Made by a program: the position numbers and the translations under genes | Notes under the pieces: generated by a model | What the model was told of the DNA's origin: nothing | Database searches by the model: none | The model's input: only the letters and a program-made list of their open reading frames with translations | Shown: positions 42,983 to 45,986 of the stretch, in pieces | How the letters are laid out: every line of letters starts with the position of its first letter | How positions within the stretch are numbered: position 1 is the first letter of the stretch | Assembly: GCF_003633755.1 (NCBI RefSeq) | Contig: NZ_RBIL01000002.1 | Location: forward strand, 186,001-250,000 | Length of the DNA: 64,000 nucleotides | Origin: Solirubrobacter pauli | Lineage (GTDB): Bacteria; Actinomycetota; Thermoleophilia; Solirubrobacterales; Solirubrobacteraceae | Reading direction: 5' to 3'

Positions 42983-42988
42983 GGGTAG
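42983..42988 (+). promoter_or_regulatory. GGGTAG box before the di-iron oxidase-like gene
   Basis: GGGTAG ends 9 nt before ATG 42998, matching the spacing at 5901, 27020 and 51221. The -35 region (GCGCAA at 42964-42969, 13-nt spacer) agrees with GTTTAA at only three positions. Confidence 0.35.
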
Positions 42989-42997
42989 GGCTCGCCC

Positions 42998-43993
42998 ATG
43001 GCGATCCTTCCCCAGCCGCGCGGTCCCGTGAGCGAGGCGCTCCTGACTGCGCTCCAGCAGCCGCCGGAGCCCGTCGAGCTGCCGACGGAGCCGATCGACT
43101 TCGAGGACCTCCAACTCGCGCTGTACTGCTGCTACGAGCTGCACTACCGCGGGTTCGAGGGTGTTGACGATGCGTGGGAATGGGACCCCGGGCTCCTCGC
43201 GTTCCGTGCGGTGCTCGAGGCGGCCTTCGAGGCCGATGTCCACGAGTTGGCGGGCACGCCGGGCGAGCCGCCCGAGCCGGGACGGATCGACGTCGAGATC
43301 CGCGAGATCATGCAGGCCGACGACGCGCCGTCGGTGTCGACCTACATCGAGCGCGAGGCCACGCGCGAGCAGGTGCTCGAGTTCCTGATCCACCGCTCGG
43401 CCTACCAGCTCAAGGAAGCCGATCCGCATTCATGGGCGATCCCCCGCCTGCACGGGGTGCCCAAGGCCGCGCTGGTGGAGATCCAGGCCGACGAGTACGG
43501 CGAGGGCCGCCCGGAGCAGGTGCACGCGCAGCTGTTCGCGCGCACGATGGACGCGGTCGGGCTGGACTCGGCGTACGGCGCGTACCTGGACCGGATCCCC
43601 GGCGTGACGCTCGCGACCGTGAACCTGATGTCGTGGATGGGCCTGCACCGGCGTCGCCGCGGCGGCATCGTCGGGCACCTGGCGCTGTTCGAGATGACCT
43701 CTGCGATCCCCAACCGGCGCTACGGCAGCGGCCTGCGCCGGCTCGGCTGGGAGAGCGAGGACGCGGTCGCGTTCTTCGACGTGCACGTGGTCGCCGACGC
43801 CGTGCACGAGAGCATCGCCGCGGTCGACCTCGCGGGCGGGCTCGCCAAGCAGGACCCCAAGCTCGGCGCCGACGTGCTCTGGGGCGCTCGGGCGCTGACC
43901 GCGATCGACGGCCGCTGGTCCCGGCACATGATGGAACGCTGGGAAGCCGGCGGCTCGTCGCTGCACGACGGCGGCGTGTTGTCGCACTCGTGA
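42998..43993 (+). CDS. Iron-containing redox enzyme family protein (heme-oxygenase-like di-iron oxidase)
   Basis: A 331-residue helical protein with the Glu/His pattern of heme-oxygenase-like di-iron oxidases. Candidate ligands lie in YCCYELHYRGFEGVDDAWEW, ALVEIQADEYGEGRPEQVHAQ and the later HLALFEMTSA...VVADAVHESIA. Members catalyse O2-dependent oxidations such as oxidative decarboxylation or C-C/N cleavage in small-molecule pathways. ATG 42998 lies 9 nt after GGGTAG. Its TGA overlaps the GTG of a carboxylate-amine ligase, and a CDGSH protein and methyltransferase follow on the other strand. Substrate unknown. Confidence 0.82.
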   Translation: MAILPQPRGPVSEALLTALQQPPEPVELPTEPIDFEDLQLALYCCYELHYRGFEGVDDAWEWDPGLLAFRAVLEAAFEADVHELAGTPGEPPEPGRIDVEIREIMQADDAPSVSTYIEREATREQVLEFLIHRSAYQLKEADPHSWAIPRLHGVPKAALVEIQADEYGEGRPEQVHAQLFARTMDAVGLDSAYGAYLDRIPGVTLATVNLMSWMGLHRRRRGGIVGHLALFEMTSAIPNRRYGSGLRRLGWESEDAVAFFDVHVVADAVHESIAAVDLAGGLAKQDPKLGADVLWGARALTAIDGRWSRHMMERWEAGGSSLHDGGVLSHS

Positions 43994-45066
43994 ACCTCCG
44001 GGCGATATTCGAGGCGCCCGAGCCGCTGACGGTCGGGCTCGAGGAGGAGGTGATGCTCCTCGACCCGGTGACGCTCGACCTGGCGCCCGTCGGCACCCGC
44101 ATTCCGGGCGCCAAGCTCGAGCTGCCCGCCGCGCAGGTGGAGCTCGACACGCCGCCCGCGCGGACCGTGGGCGAGGCGATCGACGCGCTTGCCGAAGGGC
44201 GCCGGGAGCTGGCCGCGGCGTGCGGCGACCTCGCGCGCCCCGCGGTTGCCCCGGTGCACCCGTTCGCCGCGCCGCTCGGCGAGCTCAACCGCGGCGAGCG
44301 CTACGACGCGATCCTCGCCCAGTACGGCGACGTCGCCCGCGCGCAGCTCGTGGGCGCGCTGCAGGTGCACGTCGCCGTCGGCTCCGCGGACCGCTCGCTC
44401 GCGGTCTACAACGCGCTGCGGGGGTTCCTGCCCGAGCTGGCCGCGCTCGCCGCCAACGCGCCGTTCGTCGCCGGTCGGGACACGGGCTTCGCGTCCGTGC
44501 GGCCGCTCATCGGCGGCCTGCTGCCGCGGCAGGACGTCCCGCCGGCGTTCGCCTCCTGGGGCGACTACGAGGAGGCGCTGCGCTGGGTCAAGGACCCGGG
44601 CTCGTGGTGGTGGGAGCTGCGCCCGCACACCAAGTTCGGCACGCTCGAGATCCGCGTGTGCGACGCGCAGACCACGCTCGAGGAGGCCGCCGCCGTCGCC
44701 GCGTACGCGCACTGCCTCGTGGCCTGGCTCGCCGAGCAGGACGACGTCGAGCCGGTCGCCTCGTGGAAGATCGGCGAGAACCGCTGGGCCGCGTTGCGGC
44801 ACGGGGTCGAGGCGATGTTCAAGGACCTGCGGACCGGCGACGAGCGGCCGGCCCGCTACGTGCTCCTCGAGCGCGTCGAGGCGCTGACGCCCCTCGCCGA
44901 GCGGCTCGGCTGCGCGGACGAGCTCGCGCTCGTGCCGCGCATGGTCATCCGCAACGGCGCGATCCGCCAGCGCGAGGTGGGGGTGGAAGGCGCGGCGAGC
45001 TACCTCGCCGAGCGCTTCCTCACTCCCGCCCGTCTTCCAGCGCGCCCGGCGCTCGGAACCGGATGA
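43990..45066 (+). CDS. Carboxylate-amine ligase, glutamate-cysteine ligase 2 family (second copy)
   Basis: A 358-residue GCS2-type enzyme: LTVGLEEEVMLLDPVTLDLAP, ARAQLVGALQVHVAVGSADR, and SWWWELRPHTKFGTLEIRVCDAQT (RPHxxxGTLExR). It keeps the same ATP/metal motifs as the copy at 25874 but differs strongly elsewhere. A different acid/amine pair is therefore likely. It is translationally coupled to the di-iron oxidase-like protein (GTGA), implying consecutive steps. Its last 47 bp overlap the convergent CDGSH gene. Confidence 0.88.
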   Translation: MNLRAIFEAPEPLTVGLEEEVMLLDPVTLDLAPVGTRIPGAKLELPAAQVELDTPPARTVGEAIDALAEGRRELAAACGDLARPAVAPVHPFAAPLGELNRGERYDAILAQYGDVARAQLVGALQVHVAVGSADRSLAVYNALRGFLPELAALAANAPFVAGRDTGFASVRPLIGGLLPRQDVPPAFASWGDYEEALRWVKDPGSWWWELRPHTKFGTLEIRVCDAQTTLEEAAAVAAYAHCLVAWLAEQDDVEPVASWKIGENRWAALRHGVEAMFKDLRTGDERPARYVLLERVEALTPLAERLGCADELALVPRMVIRNGAIRQREVGVEGAASYLAERFLTPARLPARPALGTG

Positions 45067-45238
45067 CGTTGTGCGTGCCGTCGCAGAACGGCCGCATCCG
45101 GGACTTGCCGCAGCGGCAGAGCGCGACCGCCCGCTCGTGGTTGGGCTCGATCACGTTGCCGTCCTGATCGACGATCTGGACGTCGCCGCGGAGCATCAGC
45201 GGGCCGTCGCGGTAGACGGTGATGGACGGCTCGGTCAC
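45020..45238 (-). CDS. CDGSH iron-sulfur domain protein (mitoNEET-like)
   Basis: A 72-residue protein with one CDGSH motif, CRCGKSRMRPFCDGTH, giving the 3-Cys/1-His ligation of a redox-active [2Fe-2S] cluster. The preceding strands DGPLMLRGDVQIVDQDGN form the small beta cap. It is soluble, without a membrane anchor. It could donate electrons to the nearby di-iron oxidase. GTG 45238 overlaps the methyltransferase stop. The 3' end overlaps the ligase gene by 47 bp. Confidence 0.9.
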   Translation of the reverse strand: MTEPSITVYRDGPLMLRGDVQIVDQDGNVIEPNHERAVALCRCGKSRMRPFCDGTHNVIRFRAPGALEDGRE

Positions 45239-45885
45239 GGCTGGGGCACCTTTCCTCGGGCGACGACGACTTCTTCGTGGTCCTGCCCGCTGGAGCCGAC
45301 CACGGCACGCATCAATGGGCCGACCGGGCCGGTCTCGCTCGCGGCGACGTCGGCCTGAAGGCCACGCGCCGCGTAGGCGCGCAGGGTCGTCGGCGTCCCG
45401 CAGAACTCCGAGTGCACGAGCAGCAGCGTGCCGCCCGGCGCGAGGTGGCGCGGGGCCTCGGCGATGATCCGGTCGAGCACGACGCGGCCGTCCGCGCCCG
45501 CTTCCCACGCGCGCGAGGCGCCGCGGCGTGGCGGGTCGCCGCCCGGGACGTACGGCGGGTTGGCGATGATCAGGTCGAAGCGCTCGCCGGCGACGGCGCT
45601 GAGCAGGTCGCCGCGCCGCGCGACGATCGGGACGTGGTTGATCGCCGCGTTGATGCGGGCGTTGATGACCGCGCGGCGCATCACGTCGACGGTGACGAGC
45701 TCGCCGTCGTGCGCGCGGGCCGCCACGATGCCCGCGAACGCCGGGCCGGCGCACAGCTCGAGGATCCGCGCCCCGCGTGGAGCGGGCTCGCGGGCCGCGG
45801 TGCGTGCCAGCAACCAGGTGTCCGAGCGCGGCCGGAACACGCCCGGGAGCACCACGCCGCGGGCAGGGGAGTTCCTGATGAGCAT
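45235..45885 (-). CDS. HemK2/MTQ2-like class I methyltransferase
   Basis: A 216-residue SAM-dependent methyltransferase. It starts with a substrate loop (GVVLPGVFRPRSDTWLLA), then SAM motif I ILELCAGPAFAGIVAA. The catalytic FDLIIANPPYVPGGD (NPPY) motif is typical of amide/glutamine N-methyltransferases and N6-adenine enzymes. It lacks the PrmC N-terminal domain, so is of the short HemK2/MTQ2-like kind. Neighbour context (CDGSH, ligase, oxidase) suggests a small-molecule or peptide-modifying role rather than release-factor methylation. Confidence 0.87.
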   Translation of the reverse strand: MLIRNSPARGVVLPGVFRPRSDTWLLARTAAREPAPRGARILELCAGPAFAGIVAARAHDGELVTVDVMRRAVINARINAAINHVPIVARRGDLLSAVAGERFDLIIANPPYVPGGDPPRRGASRAWEAGADGRVVLDRIIAEAPRHLAPGGTLLLVHSEFCGTPTTLRAYAARGLQADVAASETGPVGPLMRAVVGSSGQDHEEVVVARGKVPQP

Positions 45886-45986
45886 CAGGAGCGGTCCTAA
45901 CCGCGCCGGTTGCGCGCGAATGACGGGCGGTCATTCGTCGAACGGCGAGGCGTGCGCCGGGCGCCGGGCGGGAAGGAAGCGCTCGC

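What the first reader, a model, noticed from the sequence alone, without database searches (positions are those of the whole stretch)
42983..45885. Di-iron oxidase, carboxylate-amine ligase, CDGSH protein and NPPY methyltransferase cluster
Two forward genes coupled by GTGA (heme-oxygenase-like di-iron oxidase and GCS2 ligase) face two reverse genes also coupled by GTGA (NPPY methyltransferase then CDGSH [2Fe-2S] protein). The 3' ends overlap by 47 bp. Together they supply ATP-dependent amide bond formation, O2-dependent oxidation, an electron carrier and a methyl transfer. That is a plausible minimal pathway for a small amide-containing metabolite or peptide modification. From memory, these families occur near one another in other actinobacteria, but I have not verified this. 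A GGGTAG box precedes the first gene, suggesting stress induction. No product is known to me.
Basis: partly seen in the sequence, partly recalled or inferred. Interest (0 to 1): 0.7.

Follow-up and report, generated by a model that had tools for sequence, protein, structure and literature searches.

The report
Stress-linked di-iron oxidase gene module
Four neighbouring genes in a soil bacterium belong to a set kept together in many actinobacteria and tied to their general stress response; they may make an unknown nitrogen-oxidised protective small molecule.

Summary
The neighbourhood is conserved beyond this strain: 19 loci (window included) hold all four families in 6 orders. The core is oxidase + CDGSH (38 of 60 fetched loci; 0 of 60 control windows hold a CDGSH gene), often with the HemK2-type methyltransferase. 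The ligase is a lineage-specific fourth part; a glycosyltransferase occurs elsewhere. The oxidase model (pLDDT 94) matches the N-oxygenases HrmI, SznF and RohS best, and the metal-ligand positions are kept in 149 or 150 of 150 aligned rows. The GGGTAG box is real: 19 of 27 related oxidase genes have GGGTA 15-18 nt before the start, against 6 of 69 partner genes. The box marks the oxidase, not the partners. In M. smegmatis, genes that look syntenic (MSMEG_1771-1773) fall by 4-6 log2 units in a sigF mutant (PMC4694148, passages). Best reading: a stress module whose sigma-B/F-controlled oxidase N-oxygenates an unknown amino-acid-like substrate. Linkage and oxidase regulation are well supported; substrate, product, step order and co-regulation of the partners in this lineage are inferred. 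No paper on the module was found in the held library.

The parts
42983..42988 (+). GGGTAG box, likely -10 element of a sigma-B/F type promoter with a very short leader
   Evidence: Same box at 15 nt in L027, L028 and L030. GGGTA 13-19 nt before the start (seen at 15-18) in 19 of 27 related oxidase genes, against 6 of 69 partner genes of the same loci by the same start rule and 25 of 252 long ORFs, oxidase ORFs included and starts chosen by a cruder rule. The -35 of the window itself is weak (GTGC-N17, read by eye).
42998..43993 (+). Haem-oxygenase-like di-iron oxidase (HDO), predicted N-oxygenase, 331 aa
   Evidence: PF14518; ligand columns E140 E166 H176 E232 H263 D267 H270; model pLDDT 94.4, pTM 0.92; best fold matches HrmI Z 32.5, SznF 28.5, RohS 26.7.
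43990..45066 (+). YbdK-type GCS2 carboxylate-amine ligase, 358 aa, overlaps the HDO stop by GTGA
   Evidence: PF04107; TIGR02050 over cut-off; solved relatives 1r8g and 1tt4; G16 E18 E20 E44 E51 R71 R211 T218 E220 R222 D225 identical in all aligned rows that reach them, of 40 rows with the window in twice.
45020..45238 (-). CDGSH [2Fe-2S] protein, 72 aa, likely electron carrier; the only CDGSH match in the genome
   Evidence: PF09360; C41 C43 C52 H56 at 1.00 in 117 aligned rows.
45235..45885 (-). HemK2/MTQ2-type NPPY methyltransferase, 216 aa, coupled to CDGSH by GTGA
   Evidence: TIGR00537 over cut-off; PF05175; N109 P110 P111 kept at 0.97, 1.00 and 1.00 in 61 aligned rows.
45020..45066 (.). 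47-bp tail-to-tail overlap of ligase and CDGSH genes
   Evidence: Elsewhere, convergent HDO and CDGSH genes overlap at their 3' ends in 24 of 38 adjacent convergent pairs.

Best explanation
This is one copy of a conserved actinobacterial stress module. A sigma-B/F-type sigma factor, activated by stress such as drying or oxidants, starts transcription at the GGGTAG box and makes the di-iron oxidase and, in this genome, the ligase coupled to it. Methyltransferase and CDGSH genes form the facing operon; its control in this lineage is not known. The HDO binds two irons, activates O2 and, by its closest structural kin, hydroxylates a nitrogen of an amino-acid-like substrate. The CDGSH protein re-reduces the di-iron site. 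The YbdK-type ligase joins a carboxylate (probably glutamate) to an amine, and the NPPY methyltransferase methylates a nitrogen of the product or an intermediate. The result would be a small protectant made in stressed or dormant cells. Shown by computation: gene identities, conserved linkage, ligand conservation, predicted HDO fold, position-fixed box before the oxidase. Taken from published M. smegmatis tables: sigma-F dependence of what look like the same three genes, identified by gene order and promoter resemblance. Inferred: N-oxygenation, the electron-carrier role, substrate, product and step order.
For: Linkage: of 60 loci fetched (59 from 56 of the 62 oxidase genomes of the phylum draw, plus one class-draw genome; window included), CDGSH is within 4 kb in 38 and HemK2 in 23. 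Control windows: CDGSH 0 of 60 against 25 of 33 HDO loci of the same 30 genomes, HemK2 1 of 60 against 17 of 33. Genome co-occurrence: both in 49, HDO only 13, CDGSH only 75, neither 259 of 396; odds ratio 13, not corrected for relatedness. All four in 19 loci in 6 orders, at least 5 rearrangements on a FastTree tree. Enzyme: fold matches led by N-oxygenases; ligands. Oxidase promoter: (relaxed motif in 31 of 141 upstreams against 1.2% of random windows). Setting: SigF and LAT in the same locus L182; STAS, HATPase, SpoIIE and RsbU genes directly before HDO in L176; two SigB/F sigma genes around the trio in a Streptomyces plasmid; stress-signalling genes beside all four in Kitasatospora. Published tables, passages seen: log2 change in the M. 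smegmatis sigF mutant, two values each: MSMEG_1771 -6.17/-5.69, 1772 -5.91/-6.43, 1773 -5.98/-4.09, carboxylate-amine ligase MSMEG_5590 -5.48/-3.09. MSMEG_1771-1774 are raised in multiply spray-dried cells. An Acinetobacter HDO, DtpC, protects dried cells and needs its predicted metal ligands.
Against: In the window's relatives the box is before the oxidase but before 0 of 19 ligase, 4 of 26 CDGSH, 2 of 21 methyltransferase and 0 of 3 glycosyltransferase genes: co-regulation of the partners there is not shown, and in loci where the ligase precedes the oxidase the box lies between them. 14 of 60 fetched HDO loci have no tagged gene within 4 kb and one more has only an ANTAR gene; 13 of 62 HDO genomes lack any CDGSH match. 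The ligase is in 4 of the 60, window included. Stress-signalling genes near HDO are mildly enriched (7 of 33 against 4 of 60, p 0.05; a wider list of signalling tags gave 8 of 33 against 6 of 60, p 0.08). The whole-locus motif excess is confined to one family, f34 (46 motifs in 12 loci against 9 in 22 controls); elsewhere there is none (3 in 21 against 4 in 38, p 0.53). The window's -35 is weak. No substrate is known and a shared fold does not fix the reaction. MSMEG identities are indirect: the MSMEG_1773 promoter matched 0 of 396 genomes of that genus. In the profile alignment HrmI has no glutamate at the E140 column.
Confidence: 0.5

Rival explanations
1. The HDO is itself a peroxide or oxygen scavenger: CDGSH feeds electrons to the di-iron site, which reduces H2O2 or O2 in dried, dormant cells. 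The methyltransferase and ligase are helpers or unrelated.
For: Oxidase + CDGSH is the most conserved pair (38 of 60). In A. baumannii the HDO DtpC or the catalase KatE alone suffices to limit peroxide in dried cells. The stress box is on the oxidase gene and not on the ligase.
Against: The closest folds are biosynthetic N-oxygenases. Several charged or polar non-ligand residues are nearly invariant (R70, D142, R150, K156, N209, R218, R248 at 0.97-1.00), which may be a substrate site. Ligase, methyltransferase or glycosyltransferase genes recur beside it. No sequence of DtpC was compared here.
Confidence: 0.25
2. An ordinary specialised-metabolite mini-cluster, like those in which HrmI, SznF and RohS work, making an antibiotic or signal, with stress control incidental.
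For: Those closest HDOs act in such pathways.
Against: The same core recurs in many actinobacterial families, in some loci inside sigma-B/F settings. I recognised no carrier-protein or peptide-synthetase genes in the 5 records with annotation there; 7 further records fetched carried no annotation at the place.
Confidence: 0.13
3. No joint pathway: the HemK2-CDGSH operon and the HDO are independent genes that co-reside; the methyltransferase modifies a protein such as a release factor.
For: HemK2/MTQ2 enzymes are annotated as protein methyltransferases; some HDO loci lack the partners; the partners mostly lack the box.
Against: The same families stay within 4 kb through repeated changes of order and strand and co-occur across genomes.
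Confidence: 0.12

Closest known systems
HrmI, lysine N-oxygenase (PDB 9n1a, 9nh9; hormaomycin pathway from recall)
   Same: Best fold match: Z 32.5, 305 residues aligned, rmsd 2.4. Six of the seven ligand columns carry the same residue in the profile alignment.
   Different: About 19% identity; no glutamate at the E140 column in that alignment. HrmI turns the side-chain amine of lysine into a nitro group; here there are CDGSH, ligase and methyltransferase partners and a stress box.
SznF (streptozotocin pathway) and RohS (azomycin pathway)
   Same: HDO N-oxygenases, Z 28.5 and 26.7; in the SznF alignment all seven ligand columns carry the same residue.
   Different: SznF has an extra C-terminal cupin domain, absent here; the substrate here is unknown.
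DtpC of Acinetobacter baumannii (PMC13232832; abstract and passages seen)
   Same: HDO-domain protein that protects dried cells from peroxide; its needed E143 and H153 are 10 residues apart, as are E166 and H176 here.
   Different: Co-transcribed with a catalase; 'CDGSH' does not occur in that text; no sequence comparison was made.
Sigma-F-dependent genes MSMEG_1771-1773 of Mycobacterium smegmatis (PMC4694148, PMC5445863; passages seen)
   Same: Likely the same trio, by gene order, spacing and promoter resemblance to L182.
   Different: Ligase gene unlinked (MSMEG_5590); the tables call the genes methylase and conserved hypotheticals; identity not proven here.
YbdK family (PDB 1r8g)
   Same: Sequence match over residues 7-321; subfamily cut-off passed.
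   Different: The equivalog cut-offs listed are all missed, so the substrate pair is open.

Membership tests
HDO (haem-oxygenase-like dimetal oxidase/oxygenase) | Haem-oxygenase-like helical fold | tested here: met
   Predicted model, pLDDT 94.4; HDO structures fill the top ranks.
HDO (haem-oxygenase-like dimetal oxidase/oxygenase) | Three histidine and three (or four) carboxylate metal ligands | tested here: met
   E140 E166 H176 E232 H263 H270 in 149 of 150 aligned rows and D267 in 150 of 150, window in twice; same residues in SznF.
HDO (haem-oxygenase-like dimetal oxidase/oxygenase) | Bound di-iron cofactor and O2 activation | not testable with these tools
   Needs purified protein.
HDO N-oxygenases (HrmI, SznF, RohS) | Closer to this group than to other HDOs in profile and fold | tested here: met
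   Profile E 6e-21, 2e-19 and 2e-17 against 6e-6 for BesC; Z 26-32 against 16-17 for BesC, PolF and UndA, though 3bjd (25.7) and FlcD (25.0) are close.
HDO N-oxygenases (HrmI, SznF, RohS) | Oxidises a nitrogen of its substrate | not testable with these tools
   No substrate known.
YbdK-type carboxylate-amine ligase (TIGR02050) | Family score cut-off | tested here: met
   200.4 bits against 176.4.
EgtA glutamate-cysteine ligase (TIGR03444) | Equivalog cut-off | tested here: not met
   29 bits against 370.8.
CDGSH protein (PF09360) | Three cysteines and one histidine in the CDGSH motif | tested here: met
   69.3 bits against 29.5; C41 C43 C52 H56 at 1.00.
HemK2/MTQ2 methyltransferase (TIGR00537) | Family cut-off and NPPY motif | tested here: met
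   94.5 bits against 87; NPPY in the translation.
PrmC release-factor methyltransferase (TIGR03534) | Equivalog cut-off | tested here: not met
   76.9 bits against 199.1.
Sigma-B/F regulon | -10 GGGTA at fixed distance from the oxidase start, conserved | tested here: met
   19 of 27 against 6 of 69 partner genes.
Sigma-B/F regulon | -35 GTTT-like element | tested here: inconclusive
   Window has only GTGC-N17 by eye; some relatives have GTTC or GTTT.
Sigma-B/F regulon | Same box before the facing methyltransferase-CDGSH operon | tested here: not met
   2 of 21 methyltransferase genes in related loci; none seen in the window upstream of 45885 (by eye).
Sigma-B/F regulon | A SigB/F-type sigma factor in this genome | tested here: met
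   5 TIGR02980 matches over the cut-off.
Sigma-B/F regulon | Induction under stress in this organism | not testable with these tools
   Needs transcript data.

The most novel reading that the evidence does not exclude
Actinobacteria make a previously unseen general-stress metabolite, an N-oxygenated (hydroxylamine, nitro or N-hydroxy-amide) gamma-glutamyl-type compound, under sigma-B/F control. It would be a functional counterpart to glutathione- or ergothioneine-like protectants in dried and dormant cells, and CDGSH proteins would be the redox partner of a class of HDO enzymes.
Probability: 0.2. Interest if true: 0.85.

Novelty: new variant of a known kind. Interest (0 to 1): 0.6.

Why it matters
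The review sections read here say that only about a dozen HDOs of more than 10,000 sequences have been characterised. A widely conserved partner set and a stress promoter on the oxidase turn one orphan clade into a testable pathway. It would link di-iron chemistry to survival of drying and oxidants and suggests a CDGSH protein as electron donor. It also suggests identities for strongly sigma-F-dependent genes that the M. smegmatis tables seen here call conserved hypothetical.

Tried and rejected
Chance neighbourhood: rejected by the control windows. Only 33 of the 60 fetched HDO loci, those on long contigs in 30 genomes, were used there; the 60 windows lay at positions I chose along the contigs, not at random.

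A fixed four-gene operon: rejected. The ligase is in 28 of 80 named loci and 4 of 60 fetched loci; a glycosyltransferase gene is in 18 of 80 and 11 of 60 and is never with the ligase in the 80. The two sets overlap in part: some contigs are in both.

One shared promoter type for all four genes in this lineage: not supported. It also showed that the whole-locus motif excess (49 in 33 against 13 in 60, p 0.009; reversed motif about 1 in 33 against 8 in 60) comes from one family only. I lowered the best-explanation confidence from 0.55 to 0.5 and the novel-case odds from 0.22 to 0.2 for this, and raised the scavenger rival from 0.22 to 0.25 and the no-pathway rival from 0.10 to 0.12.

Other conserved neighbours: clustering of crude gene calls found no further universal partner. 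The gene caller was rough and missed real genes, including the ligase and CDGSH genes of the window. The dimethylargininase of Kitasatospora tagged 1 of 152 loci.

Release-factor methyltransferase and EgtA identities: cut-offs missed.

Direct proof that MSMEG_1771-1773 are these genes: promoter pattern search, 0 of 396 genomes.

Literature: eight searches listed no paper that by title, abstract or the passages I opened describes the module; only open-licence PMC texts are held, and most listed papers were seen as listings only. RohS structure paper PMC13133933 is not held.
Full report
OBSERVATION. The four genes, the two GTGA couplings, the 47-bp tail-to-tail overlap and the GGGTAG box are present at the stated places. 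Family assignments pass curated cut-offs: PF14518 for the oxidase, PF04107 and TIGR02050 for the ligase, PF09360 for the CDGSH protein, TIGR00537 for the methyltransferase. The window lies at 186001-250000 of contig C2 of a 7.1-Mb genome, and the CDGSH gene is the only match in that genome. The nearest named loci are Solirubrobacter (oxidase 88-89% identical).

NEIGHBOURHOOD. In a draw of 199 genomes of the window's class, its own included, 23 have the oxidase at E 1e-10 or better. The named-genome scan kept the best 80 loci of 556 confirmed, with more existing. Tagging by tblastn gave, within 4 kb of the oxidase: CDGSH 69 of 80, ligase 28 of 80, HemK2-type methyltransferase 24 of 80, a longer methyltransferase type 6 of 80, glycosyltransferase 18 of 80. 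In a draw of 396 genomes of the phylum, 62 have the oxidase at E 1e-15 or better. I fetched 60 loci: 59 from 56 of those 62 genomes, the window's included, and one from the class draw. There CDGSH is near in 38, HemK2 in 23, glycosyltransferase in 11, ligase in 4; 14 have no tagged gene and one only an ANTAR gene. The named and drawn sets share some contigs. Nineteen loci, window included and with two near-identical Solirubrobacter records among them, hold all four families, in six orders, with at least five changes of arrangement on a FastTree tree. Two distant oxidases (about 30% identity) also keep partners: L199 has ligase and methyltransferase, L200 the methyltransferase. Across the 396 genomes oxidase and CDGSH occur together in 49, oxidase alone in 13, CDGSH alone in 75, neither in 259 (not corrected for relatedness). 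The glycosyltransferase identity rests on weak but above-cut-off Pfam matches in three examples.

CONTROL. Sixty windows of 20 kb at positions I chose in 30 of the same genomes held CDGSH in 0, HemK2 in 1, ligase in 0, oxidase in 0. The 33 oxidase loci of those genomes held CDGSH in 25, HemK2 in 17 and the ligase in 2.

ENZYME. The oxidase model has mean pLDDT 94.4 and pTM 0.92. Ranked by Z, the solved matches are HrmI 32.5, SznF 28.5, RohS 26.7, then 3bjd 25.7 and FlcD 25.0; CADD is at 19.7, and BesC, PolF and UndA near 16. HrmI and RohS are called N-oxygenases in their titles, and SznF in the review. The profile search agrees. Six ligand positions are kept in 149 of 150 aligned rows and the seventh, D267, in 150 of 150 (the window counts twice). 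SznF carries the same seven residues in the alignment; HrmI carries six, with no glutamate at E140. The review describes the SznF site as 3H/4C with an extra glutamate. E166 here, 10 residues before H176, sits in the matching DEYG stretch, but HrmI, grouped with the 3H/3C structures, also has a glutamate there, so this is supportive, not decisive. Atomic coordinates of the model were not available to me, so ligand geometry was not measured.

STRESS CONTROL. Upstream of 141 distinct oxidase genes a relaxed sigma-F motif occurs in 31 (1.2% of random windows) and the strict motif in 7 (0.2%). In 29 loci of the window's kind, 27 oxidase genes had a usable start, and 19 have GGGTA 15-18 nt before it. 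The first control, 25 of 252 long ORFs, included oxidase ORFs and used cruder starts. The second, by the same start rule, found the box before 0 of 19 ligase, 4 of 26 CDGSH, 2 of 21 methyltransferase and 0 of 3 glycosyltransferase genes, 6 of 69 in all, p 4e-9. So the box is a property of the oxidase gene; in this genome the ligase would be carried along by its coupling, but where the ligase lies upstream the box is between the two. Strict motif counts over whole loci exceed controls only in family f34 (46 in 12 against 9 in 22, p 6e-5) and not elsewhere (3 in 21 against 4 in 38, p 0.53). Signalling genes near the oxidase are mildly enriched (7 of 33 against 4 of 60, p 0.05; wider list 8 of 33 against 6 of 60, p 0.08). 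Single loci are striking: STAS, HATPase, SpoIIE and RsbU-like genes directly before the oxidase in L176; SigF about 9 kb from the trio and lysine 6-transaminase on the other side in L182; two SigB/F sigma genes around the trio in Streptomyces sp. CA-256286; a SpoIIE phosphatase, STAS, ATP-binding and CsbD genes beside the complete set in Kitasatospora sp. NBC_00039. This genome has five sigma factors over the SigB/F/G cut-off.

PUBLISHED EXPRESSION. In the M. smegmatis sigF table of PMC4694148 (passages), MSMEG_1771 methylase and 1772 and 1773 conserved hypotheticals have log2 values between -4.1 and -6.4 in the sigF mutant, and an unlinked carboxylate-amine ligase, MSMEG_5590, is also dependent (-5.48/-3.09). 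The 667-nt difference between the 1771 and 1772 promoter distances fits a methyltransferase gene followed by the next gene, as in L182 (680 nt between starts). The promoter letters printed in PMC5445863 (passages) resemble those of L182 by eye, and MSMEG_1764, lysine aminotransferase, precedes the cluster as its match does in L182. That paper lists MSMEG_1771-1774 as raised in multiply spray-dried cells. The identification remains indirect: the MSMEG_1773 promoter, with up to 2 mismatches, matched 0 of 396 genomes of that genus.

KNOWN STRESS RELATIVE. DtpC of A. baumannii is an HDO-domain protein that, like the catalase KatE, keeps peroxide low in dried cells and needs its predicted ligands (PMC13232832, abstract and passages). 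Its authors discuss scavenging and synthesis of a protective small molecule; the same two options lead my list here.

MECHANISM. Best reading: a stress module in which the HDO N-oxygenates an amino-acid-like substrate with electrons from CDGSH, and the ligase and methyltransferase (or a glycosyltransferase elsewhere) tailor the product. My odds: a real functional module about 0.85; sigma-B/F-type control of the oxidase about 0.8; the same control of all four genes in this lineage about 0.4; N-oxygenation of a small molecule about 0.5; a glutamyl amide product about 0.2.

NOVELTY. Eight literature searches listed nothing that describes the module; the library holds only open-licence papers.

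Noticed in passing
window 45918-45936: Inverted repeat GAATGAC-GGGCG-GTCATTC, operator-like, between the methyltransferase gene and a divergent zinc metallopeptidase gene; of the loci held at that point only those from this genome contain it.
   Followed up: partly
L108:6094-6915: Kitasatospora plasmid has a dimethylargininase-like gene (PF19420) between ligase and oxidase, hinting at an arginine- or guanidine-type substrate.
   Followed up: partly
L071:11008-11994, L078:10990-12117, L089:3065-4057: A glycosyltransferase-like gene (weak Pfam matches) directly follows the oxidase in many loci and is never with the ligase in the 80 named loci: a possible alternative tailoring step.
   Followed up: partly
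L108, L171-L174, L182 and others: Oxidase and CDGSH genes overlap tail to tail in 24 of 38 convergent adjacent pairs, a recurring layout.
   Followed up: partly
L147; L154 and L156 (genome G007): Genomes with two oxidase copies, divergent neighbours in L147.
   Followed up: no
L163, L164, L166: Oxidase loci without CDGSH share other neighbours: a transporter-like protein (by eye) and, in L163 and L166, a small hydrophilic protein.
   Followed up: no
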